Source: Rickettsia typhi
Lineage (GTDB): Bacteria > Pseudomonadota > Alphaproteobacteria > Rickettsiales > Deianiraeaceae
Assembly (NCBI GenBank): GCA_945881985.1
Contig: CAMCVL010000001.1
Span: forward strand, 124,001 to 188,000
Direction of reading: 5' to 3'
DNA: 64,000 nucleotides
This document shows positions 5,713-38,836 of this stretch, piece after piece; the first letter of the stretch is position 1; every line of letters starts with the position of its first letter. The notes under the pieces are model-generated. The model was given only the letters and a program-made list of their open reading frames with translations, ran no database searches and had not been told where the DNA came from. The translations under genes were made by a program, and so were the position numbers.

Positions 5713-6529
5713 GATTAAACAAATTTTTTACAAATTTATGCTATTTTTTTTGCTAGTTTTTTGCCTTCTTGCAAGTATTGTTAGCATTTACATCGGCAAG
5801 GAGCAAGTGTTTTACCTTGGGGACGGCATAATTCATTCTTCTGCCATGTTTATTTTGGCTGGCTCTTTTTTTGCAAACTCAAGTGCAAGCTTTGTTTTAA
5901 TGCTTGCGTACTGCCTTTTTACATCTGGTTTTTTAATGCTTATTAAAAACAATGAAGATAAAACGGCGAGTCTTTGTTTATTTGCTTATTTTAGTCTTGT
6001 TGTGTCAAGCTTTATTACTCAGTTTACAAGCAAAATTAATGTGCATGAGTTAATTGAGGGTTATTTTTTAGGTAGCGGTGAATATTCTGCTTTAATTTGC
6101 GGGGTGATGTTTGCGATTTTTGCAATGCTTTTTGCAGTGATGTTTGTTGATAATATCTTGGAAAAACCATCTAAAGCAAAATTTTTACATTCTGCACCTG
6201 TAGTTTTTATAACAAACTTTTTAATTTCCTTTGCAATACTTATCATGGCAAAGCAGCTTGGATTTTTAATTACATCCTGCTTTATAGTAGCCCCCTTTGT
6301 TTTTGCCAGATTTTTTACATCCTGCAATAAAAGAAGTTTTTTGCTAGGCACTTTGCTAACAACAAGCTCAGCACTAATTGGCTATTGGATATGTATGATT
6401 TACAATCTTGTGTTAAACATAACAATTTGCTTTGTAATGTTTATGGTTTTTAGTTTTGGGTTTTTAATTAAAGCCTCAACCCTCGTAGGCTGCAGGGAGT
6501 GCAAAACACCCCCTGTTAGCAAAAACTAA
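5684..6529 (+). CDS. ABC-3-type metal transporter permease (ZnuB-like), divergent
   Basis: Very hydrophobic 281-residue protein with about eight membrane segments. A segment resembling the ABC-3 signature (GDGIIHSSAMF) lies near residues 46-56, where ZnuB/MntB/TroB permeases have GDAxxHxxL. A loop around HELIEGYFLGS matches the 'xLLFGxLL' region of zinc permeases. A role in zinc or manganese uptake is inferred. The frame begins at TTG 5684, inside the acyltransferase gene; ATG 5738 is a plausible shorter start. No ATPase or substrate-binding protein is adjacent, so partners must be elsewhere or the protein has drifted. It converges on the HU gene with one base between stop codons. Confidence 0.55.
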   Translation: MAIRRKTLSKIKQIFYKFMLFFLLVFCLLASIVSIYIGKEQVFYLGDGIIHSSAMFILAGSFFANSSASFVLMLAYCLFTSGFLMLIKNNEDKTASLCLFAYFSLVVSSFITQFTSKINVHELIEGYFLGSGEYSALICGVMFAIFAMLFAVMFVDNILEKPSKAKFLHSAPVVFITNFLISFAILIMAKQLGFLITSCFIVAPFVFARFFTSCNKRSFLLGTLLTTSSALIGYWICMIYNLVLNITICFVMFMVFSFGFLIKASTLVGCRECKTPPVSKN

Positions 6530-6530
6530 A

Positions 6531-6860
6531 TTAAGCATTAATGCCATCCTTTAGTTTTTTGCCAGCGGCAAATCTAACCACTTTTGTAGCAGGAATTTTA
6601 ATTTCCTTACCAGTTGAAGGGTTTCTACCTTTTCTTGCTGCCCTTGTAACAACTTTAAGACCAAACAAGCCAATAAATTGAATTGATTTACCTTTTTTTA
6701 AGCTGTCAAAAACAAAATCAGAGAATGTGTCAAATATTTCCTCAGACTTGTTTTTAGCAAGACCAGAATTTTTAGCTAAGTAGTCAATAAAATCAACTTT
6801 GCCAAGAACATCCTTTTTAGGAGCGGCTTTTGTTGATTTAGCAGCAGCTTTAGTAGCCAT
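6531..6860 (-). CDS. HU/IHF-family DNA-binding protein
   Basis: Nucleoid-associated protein that bends DNA as a dimer. It has 109 residues from ATG 6860; a frame five codons longer exists but lacks support. The family core is intact: the DFIDYLA helix region, the FIGLFGLKVVTRAARKGRNP strand-turn and the DNA-clasping arm GRNPSTGKEIKIPATKV. The core is preceded by an unusual Lys/Ala-rich tail of about 15 residues (ATKAAAKSTKAAPKK). That makes the protein longer than the roughly 90-residue norm and could add non-specific DNA contact. It is monocistronic, with an A/T-rich leader and no Shine-Dalgarno. Confidence 0.9.
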   Translation of the reverse strand: MATKAAAKSTKAAPKKDVLGKVDFIDYLAKNSGLAKNKSEEIFDTFSDFVFDSLKKGKSIQFIGLFGLKVVTRAARKGRNPSTGKEIKIPATKVVRFAAGKKLKDGINA

Positions 6861-7068
6861 ACTACAAAAAAACAATAATAAAATAAATACAAAAACAGCA
6901 ATACACCCAGCCAGATGGCTTTGTATAAGGCTATATAATAAGTTTGTTATACTTTTGCCTTATTTTGCAAGCTTTTTTTTAAATTTTTTACAAAAATCCC
7001 TTATTTAATAAAGTCTTGAGCGATGTTTTTAACTAGTGGTAAAGTTAAGTTCACTAAGGTAAATAAAA

Positions 7069-7191
7069 CCTCCCCTAGCAGGGGAGGAAGCGACAAAGTC
7101 GCAGGTGGGGTTGTTGTTTTAGCAGGTGGGGTTGTTTAGTTTTAGCTTGGATTGCAAATACCCCACCCAACCTCCCCTAAAAGGGGAGGAG
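7069..7191 (-). repeat. Composite palindromic repeat, inverted copy with GCGAC hairpin
   Basis: This copy lies in the opposite orientation to the others. Its arm CCTCCCCTAGCAGGGGAGG (7069-7087) is followed by the inner hairpin GCGAC-AAA-GTCGC (7090-7102) and AGGTGGGGTTG. A spacer containing a partial duplication of the AGCAGGTGGGGTTGTT segment follows. It ends with AATACCCCACCCAACC and the second hairpin CCTCCCCTAAAAGGGGAGG (about 7171-7189). It sits between the divergent HU and pyrG genes. The inner hairpin differs from the GCTAGGC version in most other copies. Confidence 0.85.
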
Positions 7192-7267
7192 ATATCCGTA
7201 TAACACCCTAAAAGGGGAGGGGTTATCTGATGGTCTCCCTAAAAGGGGGGATGTTTTGAAAACCTAA

Positions 7268-7401
7268 CCTCCCCTAGCAGGGGAGGAAGCGACAAAGTCG
7301 CAGGTGGGGTTATGTAAGATAGTCATCTTGGGTCTTTCTTAAAGAGGGGGTACTATCATTATTCTCCATCTCCATTTAGGAGGAGGGCTGGGGCGGGGGT
7401 T
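7268..7401. repeat. Second partial palindromic repeat plus G-rich relative
   Basis: The 44 bp from 7268 to 7311 repeat the first arm and inner hairpin of the 7069 element (CCTCCCCTAGCAGGGGAGG, then GCGAC-AAA-GTCGC, then AGGTGGGGTT). Downstream, about 7366-7401 carries a degenerate hairpin of a related family (CATCTCCATTTAGGAGGAGG, then GCTGGGGCGGGGGTT). Between 7192 and 7267 are two further broken copies of the CCCTAAAAGGGG core. No gene is visible in 6861-7508. Confidence 0.75.
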
Positions 7402-7508
7402 AAAGTATCACCAAACCTCCCTTAACAGGTGTGCTATTAGGGTATTGTTTTGTTTTTTTTGCAAAACGGAGATATTTGACTGAGTATAAACAAAATCAAA
7501 AAATAAAA

Positions 7509-7536
7509 TTGTTTTTTGTTTTTTGCTTGTTATAAT
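7509..7536 (+). promoter_or_regulatory. Likely sigma-70-type promoter of pyrG
   Basis: TTGTTT at 7509-7514 and a perfect TATAAT at 7531-7536 are separated by 16 bp. Transcription would begin near 7543, only about 18 bases before the chosen pyrG ATG, giving a near-leaderless mRNA. That agrees with the missing Shine-Dalgarno. Confidence 0.55.
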
Positions 7537-7560
7537 TTATTTATCTTTATGGTATTGGTT

Positions 7561-9204
7561 ATGACAAAGCACTTAAAAAACACAAAATACATTTTTGTTA
7601 CAGGGGGGGTTGTGTCCTCTTTGGGTAAGGGGGTGGCTACTGCCTCCTTGGGTTATATTTTAAAGTCCATGGGTTATAGCGTTTTTTTAAAAAAGCTTGA
7701 CCCCTACCTTAACATTGACCCCGGCACCATGAACCCCAAGGAACACGGCGAGGTTTTTGTAACTAAGGATGGCATGGAGTCCGACCTTGACCTTGGGCAT
7801 TACGAGAGGTTCACTGGGGTGGATACAAGCATAGACAGCAACATAACAGCTGGCAAAATATATTATAACCTGCTTGAAAAGGAACGCCGCGGCGATTACC
7901 TAGGGCAAACAGTGCAGGTGATTCCTCATGTTACAAATTTAATTAAGGATTTTATCAAACGCAATAATGACAAATACGACTTTTTAATCTGCGAAATTGG
8001 CGGCACAGTAGGCGACATTGAAGCCCTACCTTTTTTTGAAAGCATAAGACAGATTAAATCCGAGCTACCAAGGGAGGATGTGCTTTTTGTTCACCTTACG
8101 CTCATACCTTTTTTGCACGCAACAAAGGAACTTAAAACAAAGCCTACTCAGCACTCTGTAAAGGAGCTTATGTCAATTGGCATAATTCCAGATGTAATTA
8201 TTTGCAGGACGGAGAGGGAGATAGGTGATGACAATCTTGCTAAGATTGCATCTTTTTGCAATGTAAGCAAGGAGTCCGTAATACAAGGTTTTGACACAAA
8301 AAATATATACGACATACCGCTTAGCTACATAAAACAAGGTATTGACAAGGTGCTTTGCAGCAAGCTTAATCTTGGCGAGCAAAAGCCGCAGGTGCAAAGC
8401 TTGCAACAAATTATTGACAGGCAACATAGTATTACAAGCAAAACCAATGTCAAAAAAATTGCCTTAATTGGCAAGTATACCTCTTTGCAGGATTCTTACA
8501 AGTCCTTAACGGAGTCCTTAAAGCACGCTGCATTTAGCCTTGACATTCACCATAGTATTGACTTTGTTGACGCCCGCAAGCTTGACAAAAAAAACGAGGA
8601 AGAGATTGCAAAGGCTCTTAGCGGGTTTGACGGATTTGTTGTACCGGGCGGCTTTGGCACCGATGGGCTTGAGGGCATGATTAAAGCAATAAAACACATA
8701 AGGGAGAACAATCTACCATTTTTAGGCATCTGCCTTGGTATGCAGATGACTGTGATTGAATTTGCCCGCAGTGTTCTTGGCATGGCAAAGGCTCACACAG
8801 AAGAGGTTGTGGGCGATAATGCTGAGTATATAAAGATTGTATCCACCATGGAAAGCTGGGAGAAGGATGGTAAAATTTACAAAAAAGACGCGAAGCTTGG
8901 GGGCTCAATGCGTCTTGGCGAGTATGGAGCAAAAATTGCAAAAGATACTCTTGCTTACAAAATCTACGGGCAGGATGTAATTAGCGAAAGGCATCGCCAC
9001 AGATACGAAGTTGACCTTGCCTTTAAAGACAAGCTTGAAGCCGCGGGGCTTAAGCTCTCTGGCTTATCGGCAGATTCTGGGCTGCCCGAAATTGCAGAGA
9101 TAACAAATCACAAATTTTTTATCGCCGTGCAATACCACCCCGAGTTTAACTCTGGCATTTTAAAGCCAAACCCTTTGTTTGTTGAGTTTATTAAATCTTG
9201 TTAG
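7561..9204 (+). CDS. pyrG: CTP synthase
   Basis: Converts UTP to CTP using glutamine and ATP. It has 547 residues from ATG 7561, close to the usual 545. The longer frame from a TTG at 7516 would add a non-family leader. The synthetase domain opens with YIFVTGGVVSSLGKG (P-loop, about residues 10-24). The C-terminal class I glutamine amidotransferase domain has the nucleophile Cys391 in GICLGMQ and the His526/Glu528 pair in QYHPEF. dcd follows after a 3-bp gap, so the two pyrimidine nucleotide genes form an operon. Confidence 0.97.
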   Translation: MTKHLKNTKYIFVTGGVVSSLGKGVATASLGYILKSMGYSVFLKKLDPYLNIDPGTMNPKEHGEVFVTKDGMESDLDLGHYERFTGVDTSIDSNITAGKIYYNLLEKERRGDYLGQTVQVIPHVTNLIKDFIKRNNDKYDFLICEIGGTVGDIEALPFFESIRQIKSELPREDVLFVHLTLIPFLHATKELKTKPTQHSVKELMSIGIIPDVIICRTEREIGDDNLAKIASFCNVSKESVIQGFDTKNIYDIPLSYIKQGIDKVLCSKLNLGEQKPQVQSLQQIIDRQHSITSKTNVKKIALIGKYTSLQDSYKSLTESLKHAAFSLDIHHSIDFVDARKLDKKNEEEIAKALSGFDGFVVPGGFGTDGLEGMIKAIKHIRENNLPFLGICLGMQMTVIEFARSVLGMAKAHTEEVVGDNAEYIKIVSTMESWEKDGKIYKKDAKLGGSMRLGEYGAKIAKDTLAYKIYGQDVISERHRHRYEVDLAFKDKLEAAGLKLSGLSADSGLPEIAEITNHKFFIAVQYHPEFNSGILKPNPLFVEFIKSC

Positions 9205-9207
9205 TAT

Positions 9208-9777
9208 ATGTCAGTGCTTTGCGATACACAAATAATAGATTATGTTAAAAAATACGATATGATATCGCCGTTTTACGAGCAAAATGTTAGGTCGGCAAAC
9301 GGGGTTGATAAAGTCATATCCTACGGGCTGTCGTCCTACGGCTACGACTCCATGGTGGCAGATGAGTTTAAGATATTTACCAATGTCAACAATAGTATTA
9401 TTGACCCTAAGAGCTTTGACGAAAACTCCTTTGTTGACAAAAAAACAAAGGAATGCATAATCCCCCCAAACAGCTTTGCCCTTGCCAGAACCGTTGAATA
9501 CTTTAAGGTTCCAAGGGACATCTTAGTTATTTGCCTTGGCAAATCCACCTACGCAAGATGTGGCATTATTGTAAATGTTACCCCCTTAGAGCCCGAGTGG
9601 GAGGGGTATGTAACATTAGAGTTTTCAAACACCACCCCGCTACCTGCAAAAATTTATGCTGGCGAGGGTGCCTGCCAGTTTATCTTTTTAAAAGCCGACA
9701 GCCCCTGTGCTAAATCCTACAGGGACAAAAACGGCAAATATCAAGGTCAAACCGGGGTCGTTGGACCAAGAATGTAA
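9208..9777 (+). CDS. dcd: dCTP deaminase
   Basis: Deaminates dCTP to dUTP, feeding dTTP synthesis. It has 189 residues, normal for the homotrimeric Dcd/dUTPase-fold family. The active-site segments GKSTYARCG (111-119) and VTLEF with catalytic Glu138 are present, as are the C-terminal nucleotide-covering residues near [12 protein letters not shown]. No DUT-like fusion is evident, so this should be the monofunctional deaminase. It is co-directional with pyrG, three bases downstream, and followed by a repeat cluster with a terminator-like hairpin. Confidence 0.96.
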
Positions 9778-9833
9778 AATTTTTCTTGACAAAGAGATAA
9801 CTCCTCCCCTTTAAGAACAGCCCAAAGATATCT

Positions 9834-9935
9834 CCTCCCCTTTTAGGGGAGGCTGGGTGGGGTATCTTAATACCAATGAGTATAACAACCCCACCTGCTA
9901 GGCTAAAGCCTAGCCTCCTCCCCTAAGAGGGGAGG
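9834..9935 (+). repeat. Composite palindromic repeat (L-spacer-R), copy B1
   Basis: Left arm CCTCCCCTTTTAGGGGAGG (9834-9852) is followed by CTGGGTGGGGTATC and a spacer. The right arm AACCCCACCT then leads to the inner hairpin GCTAGGC-TAAA-GCCTAGC and CCTCCCCTAAGAGGGGAGG, ending at 9935. The G-rich end of L can pair with the C-rich start of R, so the whole unit can fold into one large structure. It lies between convergent dcd and a lipoprotein gene. Confidence 0.9.
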
Positions 9936-9970
9936 AAGGTTTGCAAAAAATCCCCACTCTCTTGGGTGTT

Positions 9971-10029
9971 TTGCCCCAGCCCTCGCCCCCCTAGCGGCTT
10001 TGCCGCCTAGGGCTGGGGCAATATTTTTT
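9971..10029 (+). terminator. Large hairpin followed by T-run; likely terminator for pyrG-dcd
   Basis: TTGCCCCAGCCCT (9971-9983) pairs with AGGGCTGGGGCAA (10009-10021). Inside is a second stem, CTAGCGGC-TTT-GCCGCCTAG. The right arm runs straight into TATTTTTT, the signature of an intrinsic terminator. The inner module again has a TTT loop, so it also looks like a relative of the palindromic repeats. Confidence 0.6.
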
Positions 10030-10216
10030 GCTTTGCAAAAAATTAATTCTTAATACCATATTTGTATAACAGACCAATTCCAAAACCTCATAAATAGACC
10101 TCCTGCATAACTTATTATACAATCTCCTATCTTAAAATAGACTATACCCTACTGTGCAACTCTACAAAAAATCCCCACTCTCTGCAATACTAGCCCCCAC
10201 CCAGCCCTCTTTTTTT

Positions 10217-10278
10217 AAGAACCGCCCACAGACATCTCCTCCCCTTTAAGAACCGCCCACAGACATCTCCTCCCCTTT
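10217..10278 (+). repeat. Two exact tandem copies of a 31-bp unit
   Basis: AAGAACCGCCCACAGACATC followed by TCCTCCCCTTT occurs at 10217-10247 and again, identical, at 10248-10278. It flanks the left arm of the next composite repeat. The same period of 31 bp recurs near 27610. A longer near-identical block of about 85 bp starting at TCCCCACTCTCTGCAATACT occurs twice, near 10166-10250 and 10436-10522. Confidence 0.85.
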
Positions 10279-10297
10279 AAGGACTGCAAAGATAACT

Positions 10298-10427
10298 CCT
10301 CCCCTTTTAGGGGAGGCTGGGTGGGGTATTGCAATTACAAAAATACATAAAACTCAACAATCTACCCATTAGGATAGCAACCCCACCTGCTAGGCTAAAG
10401 CCTAGCCTCCTCCCCTAAGAGGAGAGG
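10298..10427 (+). repeat. Composite palindromic repeat, copy B2 (long spacer)
   Basis: Left arm CCTCCCCTTTTAGGGGAGG at 10298-10316, GCTGGGTGGGGTATT, then a spacer of about 50 bp. The right arm starts near 10379 and carries the GCTAGGC-TAAA-GCCTAGC inner hairpin, ending with CCTCCCCTAAGAGGAGAGG. One arm base has changed (GGAGAGG for GGGGAGG). Confidence 0.88.
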
Positions 10428-10538
10428 AAGGTTTGCACAAAATCCCCACTCTCTGCAATACTAGCCCCCCACCCAGCCCTCTTTTTTTAAGAACCGCCCA
10501 CAGACATCTCCTCCTCTTTAAGGATGCCACAAATAGCT

Positions 10539-10642
10539 CATCCCCTTTAAGGGGAGGCTGGGTGGGGTAATTACAATCCAAATAATACTAAACAACCCCA
10601 CCTGCTAGGCTAAAGCCTAGCCTCCTCCCCTGCTAGAGGAGG
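10539..10642 (+). repeat. Composite palindromic repeat, copy B3
   Basis: Slightly degenerate left arm (CATCCCCTTTAAGGGGAGG), GCTGGGTGGGGTAAT and a 25-bp spacer. The right arm has the GCTAGGC-TAAA-GCCTAGC hairpin and ends with CCTCCCCTGCTAGAGGAGG. The block from 9778 to 10813 has no supportable gene. Confidence 0.85.
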
Positions 10643-10813
10643 TTTATCAGAGGCGGACTCACCCCAGCCATCCCCGAGTATTTAAAAGTTAATCATGGAT
10701 GGAGAAGGGGAATGGACAATATGCCACAAAATACTTAAGCACAAGGCATGAATTTTTATCTATTTTTTATTTTTACAGGGTGGCAAGTTTATTTTTTACC
10801 CAATATCAGCCAT

Positions 10814-11389
10814 CTAATAATCTTTAATTGGCACGGACTTAAAGATATCTTTTTGCGACTCCAGTATAGAAAGTGCATTTGGATTGAATGTGTTATCTAT
10901 GGGGTCGTCAAAGCTTTCCTTGTTTTGAGCATTGCTTTTTGTTTGTATCAAAAATTGTAAGTATTTAAAATATTTAATTTTATCATCGTTGTAAGTGCTG
11001 CCCTGTTTTAACAAAAGCTCTTGCAAAAAATACGCATTGCCCTCGGTTATTGTTTCGTGTTTTTTTGCCATTGCGTAGTTCATGCCCTCTGGGCTTTCGA
11101 GCATGTTTTTAAAATACATATCGTTTGTCGCAACTATGTCTTCAAAATATTCTGTCTGTAGGTCGTAATACGAAATTTTATCAATATTATCAGATGTTGT
11201 GTAGATGGCATTTAACATGGGCATTGATTCATTTTTATTGTGTTTAAATTTTTTGTTATACTGCTCGTTTGAAGAAATAAAAATACTTTTGTCCTTTCTG
11301 CCACACGAGCTTGTAATTAGGCAGCAAAATATGCACAGTGTAAACAAGGATGCTAATTTTGCTTTACTTTTGCAAAAGCCTTTAATCAT
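10814..11389 (-). CDS. Putative lipoprotein of unknown function
   Basis: Predicted 191-residue exported lipoprotein from ATG 11389. The longer frame starts at a TTG (11461), and the 24 extra residues would displace the signal peptide from the N-terminus. It has a basic start (MIKGFCKSKAK), a hydrophobic core (LASLFTLCIFCCLI) and a lipobox-like TSSC with Cys29 as the lipidation site. The mature part is polar, rich in Asn, Lys and Tyr, and matches no family I recognise. It is divergent from the LPP20-like lipoprotein gene, with about 150 bp of shared upstream region. Function unknown. Confidence 0.6.
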   Translation of the reverse strand: MIKGFCKSKAKLASLFTLCIFCCLITSSCGRKDKSIFISSNEQYNKKFKHNKNESMPMLNAIYTTSDNIDKISYYDLQTEYFEDIVATNDMYFKNMLESPEGMNYAMAKKHETITEGNAYFLQELLLKQGSTYNDDKIKYFKYLQFLIQTKSNAQNKESFDDPIDNTFNPNALSILESQKDIFKSVPIKDY

Positions 11390-24171: not shown

Positions 24172-24386
24172 TATCTTTCATTATCAGGTGTTTTTACCAA
24201 GCTCTTTCATAGCTCTTTCATGTCGTAACTGTAAAGACTCTTGCTCTTTGTAAAATCTGCGTAAAACCTCCACTATTTAAAATATTGCCTTGCCCCCTTG
24301 TTCTCAGGCAACCCGCAGATAGCTCATCCCCTTTAAGAGTGACCCGCAAACATTCCCTCCCCTTTTAGAGTGGTATACATATAACT

Positions 24387-24512
24387 CCTCCCCTTTTAGG
24401 GGAGGCTGGGTGGGGTATTTGGGGTATGGGCAACACTTAACAACCCCACCTGCTAAAATGCCAACCCCACCTGCTAGGCTAAAGCCTAGCTTTCCTCCCC
24501 TACTAGGGGAGG
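24387..24512 (+). repeat. Composite palindromic repeat, copy E1
   Basis: Left arm CCTCCCCTTTTAGGGGAGG, GCTGGGTGGGGTATT and a spacer. The start of the right arm is duplicated here: CAACCCCACCTGCTAAAATG is followed by CCAACCCCACCTGCTAGGCT. The inner hairpin GCTAGGC-TAAA-GCCTAGC and TTTCCTCCCCTACTAGGGGA then complete the unit. Confidence 0.88.
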
Positions 24513-24564: not shown

Positions 24565-24670
24565 CCTCCCCTTTTAGGGGAGGTGGGGTGGGGTATTTAA
24601 ATACCAATTAGCATAACAACAACCCCACCTGCTAGGCTAAAGCCTAGCTTTCCTCCCCTATTAGGGGAGG
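24565..24670 (+). repeat. Composite palindromic repeat, copy E2
   Basis: Left arm CCTCCCCTTTTAGGGGAGG, then GTGGGGTGGGGTATTTAA and a spacer similar to copy B1 (ATACCAATTAGCATAACAAC). The right arm has the GCTAGGC-TAAA-GCCTAGC hairpin and ends with TCCTCCCCTATTAGGGGAGG. Confidence 0.88.
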
Positions 24671-27470: not shown

Positions 27471-27605
27471 GCAAAAGCTAAACAATATCATTTTTCATTT
27501 TTAAGTATTCTTAAGGCAAAACACTTATTCCCTCTGCCACCTCTCCCTTTAGGAGTAGGGCTGAGGTGGGGGCAATTTACCACACCAAAAACCCCTCCCC
27601 TTTAA

Positions 27606-27760
27606 GGGCAACCCACAGATAACTCCTCCCCTTTAAGAGTAACCCACAGATAACTCCTCCCCTTTAAGGGGAGGCTGGGTGGGGTATTTATAACCCAAGC
27701 AATACCATAACAACCCCACCTGCTAGGCTAAAGCCTAGCATCCTCCCCTGCTAGAGGAGG
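27606..27760 (+). repeat. Composite palindromic repeat with 31-bp tandem lead-in, copy F
   Basis: AACCCACAGATAACTCCTCC occurs at 27610 and again at 27641 (period 31), leading into the left arm at 27656 (CCTCCCCTTTAAGGGGAGG). GCTGGGTGGGGTATT and the spacer TATAACCCAAGCAATACCAT follow. The right arm has the GCTAGGC-TAAA-GCCTAGC hairpin and ends with CCTCCCCTGCTAGAGGAGG at 27760. The interval 27471-28095 contains no gene I can support. Confidence 0.88.
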
Positions 27761-27806
27761 ATTGGTTTGTACAAAAATCTGACTTCCCGCCCCCGCCCCT
27801 TTTTTT

Positions 27807-27863
27807 AGCCAGCTCCGCCTGCTTAGCTTTGCTAAGCAAGGGGGGGGAGGCGGGCTGGCTAGC
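27807..27863. repeat. Long inverted repeat with GCTTAGC-TTT-GCTAAGC core
   Basis: AGCCAGC and CCGCCT on the left pair with AGGCGG and GCTGGCT on the right. The inner stem is GCTTAGC-TTT-GCTAAGC, and a run of G's follows the right inner stem. The layout parallels the 9971 hairpin, with a different inner stem but the same TTT loop. A T-run (CCCCTTTTTTTAG) lies on the left side, so it could terminate minus-strand transcripts. Confidence 0.7.
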
Positions 27864-38752: not shown

Positions 38753-38836
38753 CCTCCCCTTTTAGGGGAGGCTGGGTGGGGTATTTGCAGCCCAAGCAAC
38801 AACATAACAACCCCACCTGCTAGGCTAAAGCCTAGC
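38753..38836 (+). repeat. Composite palindromic repeat, copy G (right arm truncated)
   Basis: Left arm CCTCCCCTTTTAGGGGAGG, GCTGGGTGGGGTATT and a spacer almost identical to copy F (GCAGCCCAAGCAACAACATA). The right arm includes the full GCTAGGC-TAAA-GCCTAGC inner hairpin but stops there and never reaches the second CCTCCCCT hairpin. Two half-arms lie upstream (about 38690-38750). It sits between tRNA-Ser and the 3' end of rnhA. Confidence 0.88.

What the first reader, a model, noticed from the sequence alone, without database searches (positions are those of the whole stretch)
7090..7102. The inner hairpin is a swappable cassette with different stems but a constant TTT-type loop
Within otherwise similar repeat contexts the inner stem differs completely yet stays self-complementary: GCTAGGC-TAAA-GCCTAGC (most copies), GCGAC-AAA-GTCGC (7090 and about 7289; TTT loop on the other strand), GCGGC-TTT-GCCGC (near 9993) and GCTTAGC-TTT-GCTAAGC (27821). 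Replacing a whole stem while keeping pairing and loop is strong evidence that the structure is what is selected, or that stems are exchanged as units during spread.
Basis: seen in the sequence. Interest (0 to 1): 0.7.

Follow-up and report, generated by a model that had tools for sequence, protein, structure and literature searches.

The report
Swappable hairpins in scattered DNA repeats
Short repeated DNA elements scattered between this bacterium's genes keep a fixed frame but carry interchangeable inner hairpins with nearly constant loops, and elements of the same design with dozens of different hairpins occur in distant bacterial phyla, which suggests that the folded shape rather than the sequence is what is kept.

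Summary
GCTAGGC-TAAA-GCCTAGC and GCGAC-TTT-GTCGC occupy the same slot of one repeat (AACCCCACC-[hairpin]-CCTCCCC..GGGGAGG; 36 copies sampled, 9 with GCGAC). Copies with near-identical flanks carry different stems, so stems move or arise as units. The stems at 9994 and 27821 lie in two other frames with unrelated outer arms. The 27821 frame nevertheless shows the same behaviour: 11 genome copies, three stems, TTT loop in 11 of 11. A relative (G006) has a clean 111-bp version with 9-bp terminal inverted repeats and covarying stems. The frame recurs in Alphaproteobacteria, Clostridia, Cyanobacteria and others. One Asticcacaulis genome has 53 copies with 51 different hairpins (folding z = -17). 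Loops are biased to C-TNC-G (C-GNA-G on the other strand), and an internal TC/TC mismatch recurs across phyla (11 inserts; shuffles 0.05). Best reading: a MITE/REP-like non-autonomous element whose G-rich strand folds and is recognised by shape. Mobility and the enzyme are inferred: no Y1 transposase and no target duplication were found. Alternative-stem subfamilies are known in REPs, so this is a new variant of a known kind.

The parts
7090..7102 (-). Inner hairpin H1, GCGAC type: GCGAC-TTT-GTCGC on the minus strand (AAA loop on plus)
7104..7112 (-). Terminal arm AACCCCACC of the same copy
   Evidence: end of the element defined by comparison with G006 and G008
7069..7087 (-). Hairpin H2, CCTCCCC-TGCTA-GGGGAGG
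7125..7133 (-). Extra partial copy of the terminal arm (AACCCCACCTGCTAAAACAAC) in front of the full unit
7160..7190 (-). Opposite end of an element: hairpin H3 CCTCCCCTTTTAGGGGAGG (7171-7189) followed by GGGTGGGGT, the other terminal arm
7268..7311 (-). Second GCGAC copy: H2 7268-7286, H1 7289-7301, terminal arm 7303-7311
9834..9863 (+). H3 and GGGTGGGG terminal arm upstream of the next copy
9887..9935 (+). GCTAGGC-type copy: arm 9887-9895, H1 GCTAGGC-TAAA-GCCTAGC 9897-9914, H2 9917-9935
10379..10427 (+). GCTAGGC-type copy, H1 10389-10406
10594..10643 (+). GCTAGGC-type copy, H1 10604-10621
24463..24512 (+). GCTAGGC-type copy, H1 24473-24490 (partial extra arm at 24442-24450)
24621..24670 (+). 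GCTAGGC-type copy, H1 24631-24648
27712..27762 (+). GCTAGGC-type copy, H1 27722-27739
38809..38836 (+). GCTAGGC-type copy lacking H2 (truncated), H1 38819-38836
9971..10021 (+). Different frame (frame 3): TTGCCCCAGCCCT..AGGGCTGGGGCAA outer arms around GCGGC-TTT-GCCGC (9994-10006)
27809..27858 (+). Different frame (frame 2): CCAGCTCCGCC-[TGCTTAGC-TTT-GCTAAGCA 27820-27838]-GGGGGGGGAGGCGGGCTGG; 11 genome copies with three stems

Best explanation
The inner hairpin is the variable arm of a short non-autonomous repeat (about 80-115 bp; MITE/REP-like). Its ends are the inverted arms AACCCC(A/G)CC and GG(G)TGGGGT(T), with CCTCCCC..GGGGAGG hairpins between them. The element is kept and copied as folded single-stranded DNA, or possibly RNA. 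A recognising factor reads shape: loop type, closing C-G pair, and in many hosts a tandem G-A mismatch. The stem's base pairs are therefore free to change. New stems arise by exchange between copies through the constant flanks or by template switching, and persist as long as they pair. Shown here: frame, stem exchange between copies, covariation, loop and mismatch bias, recurrence in several phyla. Inferred: mobility, a trans-acting enzyme, and single-strand recognition.
For: Same slot with two stems in one genome, and near-identical flanks with different stems. A second frame with three stems and an invariant TTT loop; a third frame with GCTGGC-AAA-GCCAGC and GCTGCC-TTTA-GGCAGC alternatives in G000 and G008. 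The stem GCTGGC-TTT-GCCAGC followed by a G-run occurs in two frames with different outer arms. A clean 108-111 bp element in G006 with 9-bp inverted ends folds as a closed multi-arm structure, z -7 to -9 as DNA. Covariation 6 pairs, 0/500 shuffles reach the score. Hypervariable but paired inserts: Asticcacaulis 51/53 distinct, z -17; Rhizobium 25/25, z -13.6; G021 z -10; G006 z -11.6. Triloops TNC 20/34 against 8.5% expected (P=1.6e-13) and closed by C-G in 32/34; GNA loops on GC stems are known as unusually stable DNA hairpins (PMC4686876). NNN-TC-NN-loop-NN-TC-NNN in 11 inserts from the G006 relative, Clostridia, a cyanobacterium and alphaproteobacteria, against 0.05 in shuffles and 0-2 for any other dinucleotide; a conserved mismatch is not what blind palindrome repair would keep.
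Against: No Y1 (IS200/IS605, RAYT) transposase in G000, G006, G008 or in 6 other host genomes, though the assemblies are incomplete. No target-site duplication in 8 copies. No empty site could be shown with aligned flanks. About a fifth of G000 copies carry uncompensated one-arm mutations, so constraint on each single copy is weak. The match across phyla is of short motifs and might be convergent.
Confidence: 0.5

Rival explanations
1. The hairpins act as RNA: they are transcribed and serve as terminators, mRNA-end stabilisers or processing sites, and selection on RNA pairing keeps any stem that folds.
For: Copies are intergenic; terminator-like sites in 6500-11000 are 13 against 5.6 expected, and H2 with a T-rich tail is among them. 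RNA folding is strong. The reported REP preference for gene 3' ends fits (PMC3733652).
Against: The copies at 7.1-7.3 kb lie between divergently transcribed genes (HU-like and CTP synthase). Many hairpins have no T-run. No Rfam family matches. Terminal inverted arms and exact ends are not needed for a terminator.
Confidence: 0.2
2. No selection on structure: template switching at quasi-palindromes creates and corrects stems, so pairing is a by-product of mutation.
For: The mechanism is documented, creates perfect stems in one event and produces multi-base compensatory changes (PMC8794818). Frame 2 stems change length in both arms at once with no one-sided intermediates among 11 copies.
Against: The conserved TC/TC mismatch (11 inserts) and strand-asymmetric loop TNC with C-G closing would not be preserved by blind correction. 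One-arm mutations persist uncorrected in G000.
Confidence: 0.15
3. Plain subfamily divergence: the stems are old separate subfamilies and no exchange has taken place.
For: The spacer motif AAGCTAAAAC goes with GCGAC stems (7/9 against 3/27, P=4e-4). G008 carries the same GCGAC stem, so it probably predates the split of the two species.
Against: Adjacent copies in the C5 array (L018) have almost identical flanks but different stems, and downstream flanks carry no information on stem type.
Confidence: 0.1

Closest known systems
REP elements (GTAG and CGTC superfamilies) and BIMEs
   Same: Short intergenic palindromes in many copies and several phyla; tandem and mosaic arrays; subfamilies with alternative complementary stems and loops are described (PMC3733652).
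   Different: Larger composite frame with terminal inverted arms and two G-rich hairpins; no GTAG or CGTC tag at the hairpin base; no RAYT gene found; the CCTCCCC/GGGGAGG strings do not occur in that paper's text.
REPINs / RAYT-mobilised REP (TnpA-REP)
   Same: In TnpA-REP of E. coli, upper stem and loop sequence can be swapped while a mismatch bulge is required (PMC8266576), which parallels the variable stem and conserved TC/TC mismatch here.
   Different: Y1 transposase absent from G000, G006 and G008.
Bacterial MITEs (Correia/NEMIS, ERIC, RUP, Nezha)
   Same: 70-300 bp, terminal inverted repeats, no coding capacity, strong secondary structure.
   Different: No target-site duplication seen in 8 copies and no parent transposon identified.
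IS200/IS605 end hairpins
   Same: Single-strand hairpins with conserved loops and irregularities next to element ends.
   Different: No transposase, no autonomous copy; several hairpins per element.

Membership tests
REP (GTAG/CGTC) | 20-40 bp palindrome in many intergenic copies | tested here: met
   H1 and H2 hairpins, 36 sampled copies in G000
REP (GTAG/CGTC) | Unpaired GTAG or CGTC tag at one end of the palindrome | tested here: not met
   No such tag flanking H1 or H2 in the listed G000 and G006 copies, read by eye
REPIN/RAYT | A RAYT (Y1 transposase, PF01797) in the genome | tested here: not met
   0 matches in G000, G006, G008; the control genomes ring; assemblies 86-89% complete
MITE | Terminal inverted repeats on a 70-300 bp non-coding element | tested here: met
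   AACCCCACC..GGTGGGGTT, 108-111 bp in G006; AACCCCGCC..GGTGGGGTT in G008
MITE | Target-site duplication | tested here: not met
   0 of 8 copies have a duplication of 2 bp or more
MITE | Parent transposon with the same ends | not tested
   No search for a full-length element with these ends was made
Structured RNA family | Match to an Rfam model | tested here: not met
   Only tRNAs in the window; no convincing match in 11 loci at relaxed threshold
Intrinsic terminator | GC hairpin followed by a T-run | tested here: inconclusive
   Some H2 copies qualify, many do not

The most novel reading that the evidence does not exclude
A superfamily of non-autonomous hairpin elements, spread across phyla, whose recognition is coded by shape (C-GNA-G loop, tandem G-A mismatch, G-rich frame) rather than by stem sequence. 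The inner stem is then a freely swappable, near copy-specific cassette, and an unknown enzyme acting on folded single strands moves the elements.
Probability: 0.3. Interest if true: 0.82.

Novelty: new variant of a known kind. Interest (0 to 1): 0.58.

Why it matters
Covariation of stems is usually read as proof of a functional RNA. These repeats offer many natural stem swaps in a fixed frame, dozens within one genome, with conserved loops and a conserved mismatch that help separate shape selection from mutational palindrome repair. If the frame is one family, it is a short non-coding element shared by very distant bacteria with no known mover, which makes the search for a single-strand-acting enzyme concrete.

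Tried and rejected
Rfam at gathering and relaxed thresholds: no family. Y1 transposase in own genome, two relatives and ten other hosts: absent from own genome, both relatives and six others. Four hosts do have Y1 matches (G022, G023 and G027 strong, G026 weak); these were not followed up. Synteny of window copies in G008: flanking genes rearranged, no usable empty site. Empty site for a G006 copy in G005: the downstream gene is present and no element lies upstream, but the flank has diverged too far to align. Literature searches for these repeats in Patescibacteria, or for CCTCCCC/GGGGAGG intergenic repeats: nothing relevant. Nearest-neighbour flank analysis did not show a clean subfamily tree.

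Full report
Check of the observation. The four hairpins are present at the stated places. In orientation, the element runs AACCCCACC - H1 - H2 (CCTCCCC..GGGGAGG) - linker - H3 (CCTCCCC..GGGGAGG) - GGGTGGGGTATT; at 7 kb it is on the minus strand and elsewhere in the window on the plus strand. H1 is GCGAC-TTT-GTCGC at 7090-7102 and 7289-7301, and GCTAGGC-TAAA-GCCTAGC in the seven other window copies. Over the sampled genome regions 36 copies were found: 19 intact GCTAGGC stems, 9 GCGAC stems and 8 copies with one-sided damage (GCTAGAC twice, GCTAGTC, GCCAAGC, CACAGGC twice, CACAGGG, and one heavily decayed).

GCGGC-TTT-GCCGC (9994) and GCTTAGC-TTT-GCTAAGC (27821) do not have AACCCCACC or CCTCCCC arms. 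They lie in frame 3 (TTGCCCCAGCCCT..AGGGCTGGGGCAA) and frame 2 (CCAGCTCCGCC..GGCGGGCTGG). Frame 2 has 11 genome copies with three different stems, TGCTGGC, TGCAAGC and TGCTTAGC, all fully paired apart from an end base in one copy, all with TTT. Frame 4 (AACACACACGCCC..GGGCGTGTG) carries GCTGGC-AAA-GCCAGC in G000 and both that stem and GCTGCC-TTTA-GGCAGC in its congener G008. The stem GCTGGC-TTT-GCCAGC with an adjacent G-run occurs in both frame 2 and frame 4. So the cassette behaviour is real and repeated in independent frames, even though the four stems first named do not share one context.

Unit exchange or subfamilies. The spacer motif AAGCTAAAAC is linked to the GCGAC stem (7 of 9 against 3 of 27, P=4e-4), which points to subfamilies. 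But downstream flanks do not predict the stem (20 of 36 nearest neighbours agree, shuffles 22). In the C5 array, copies L018:966 and L018:690 have nearly identical downstream flanks, and L018:966 and L011:565 nearly identical upstream flanks, with entirely different stems. This is direct evidence that stems have been exchanged, or replaced, as units.

Definition of the element from relatives. G006 (same family, another genus) has a clean element of 108-111 bp with 9-bp inverted ends AACCCCACC/GGTGGGGTT, H1, H2, H3 and a fourth hairpin H4. It folds as a closed multi-arm structure on either strand (DNA z -8.7 and -7.2). On six copies, 35 pairs, 95.7% of cells pair; 6 pairs have double changes; the covariation score is 0.164 against 0.086 in shuffles (0 of 500) and at most 0.051 when the pairing is slid. 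In H4 the outer and inner pairs covary around a GA/GA internal mismatch and a GAAT loop that are constant in all but one decayed copy. G008 has AACCCCGCC-TGCGACTTTGTCGCA-TCCTCCCC..GGTGGGGTT, the same GCGAC stem as G000.

Spread in other bacteria. In viral contigs it gave 39 against 5 for the reversed control; in nine chosen genomes or records the reversed control gave zero. Many short inserts (CCCCAACC and similar) only lengthen H2. Among 48 distinct inserts of 13 nt or more, 27 hold a perfect stem of at least 5 bp against 2.5 in shuffles. One Asticcacaulis genome has 53 copies and 51 distinct inserts, most built as ACC-stem-GGT. Inside it, sets with a constant loop and changing stems are visible, such as TGAAGAA loops on GCCA, GAGCC, GCGC and GTCCA stems.

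Loop and mismatch. Of 34 triloop hairpins in the pooled set, 20 have TNC loops (8.5% expected, P=1.6e-13) and 32 are closed by C-G; the home family alone has TTT and TTC triloops, all closed by C-G. TNC is GNA on the other strand, the loop class known to make unusually stable DNA mini-hairpins such as GCGAAGC (PMC4686876). The motif NNN-TC-NN-loop-NN-TC-NNN with variable paired bases occurs in 11 distinct inserts from the G006 relative, Clostridia, a cyanobacterium, Rhizobium and Asticcacaulis. Shuffles give 0.05, and every other dinucleotide gives 0 except GC with 2. A kept mismatch between changing pairs argues for recognition of shape and against pure palindrome repair.

Mechanism. The most likely account is a MITE/REP-like non-autonomous element, recognised as a folded strand, in which stem sequence is free. 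A parallel is E. coli TnpA-REP, which tolerates swapped upper stems and loops but needs the mismatch bulge (PMC8266576). The steps not shown are mobility and the enzyme: no Y1 transposase, no target duplication, no clean empty site. Source of new stems: exchange through the constant flanks is supported by example; template switching is a documented way to make new perfect stems (PMC8794818) and remains possible.

Novelty. Alternative complementary stems within REP families are already described (PMC3733652). Not found described here are the composite frame, its recurrence across phyla, the near copy-specific stems in Asticcacaulis, and the joint loop and mismatch rule; the paper library searched is open-access only, so an earlier description in a subscription journal is possible. 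Whether the frame is homologous across phyla or convergent is open.

Noticed in passing
window 10194-10281, 10466-10551, 24300-24390, 27580-27660: 31-bp tandem units (CTCCTCCCCTTTAAGAACCGCCCACAGACAT) fill the linker between H2 and H3 in variable number, like half-hairpins; reminiscent of modular BOX elements.
   Followed up: no
window 10023-10043: An ATTTTTTGC-TTT-GCAAAAAAT hairpin sits beside the frame 3 palindrome here and in L009, L025 and L029.
   Followed up: no
window 7122-7133 and 24442-24462; L022 536-575: One to two extra partial copies of AACCCCACCTGC(T)AAAA placed directly in front of the full unit.
   Followed up: no
G008 contigs 9, 17, 20, 21, 25, 45, 51 (first 150 bases): Related repeats sit at many contig ends, so copy numbers in this draft genome are probably underestimates.
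   Followed up: partly
L033 (G006 contig 9): A 290-bp tandem duplication carries the element and its flank twice.
   Followed up: no
L246, L259, L261, L280 (Caulobacterales-type copies): The tip of H2 is also exchanged while staying paired (GGC-AAA-GCC, GAC-GA-GTC, ATC-AAA-GAT).
   Followed up: no
window 6531-9204: The finding's copies lie between divergent genes for an HU-like DNA-binding protein and CTP synthase.
   Followed up: partly
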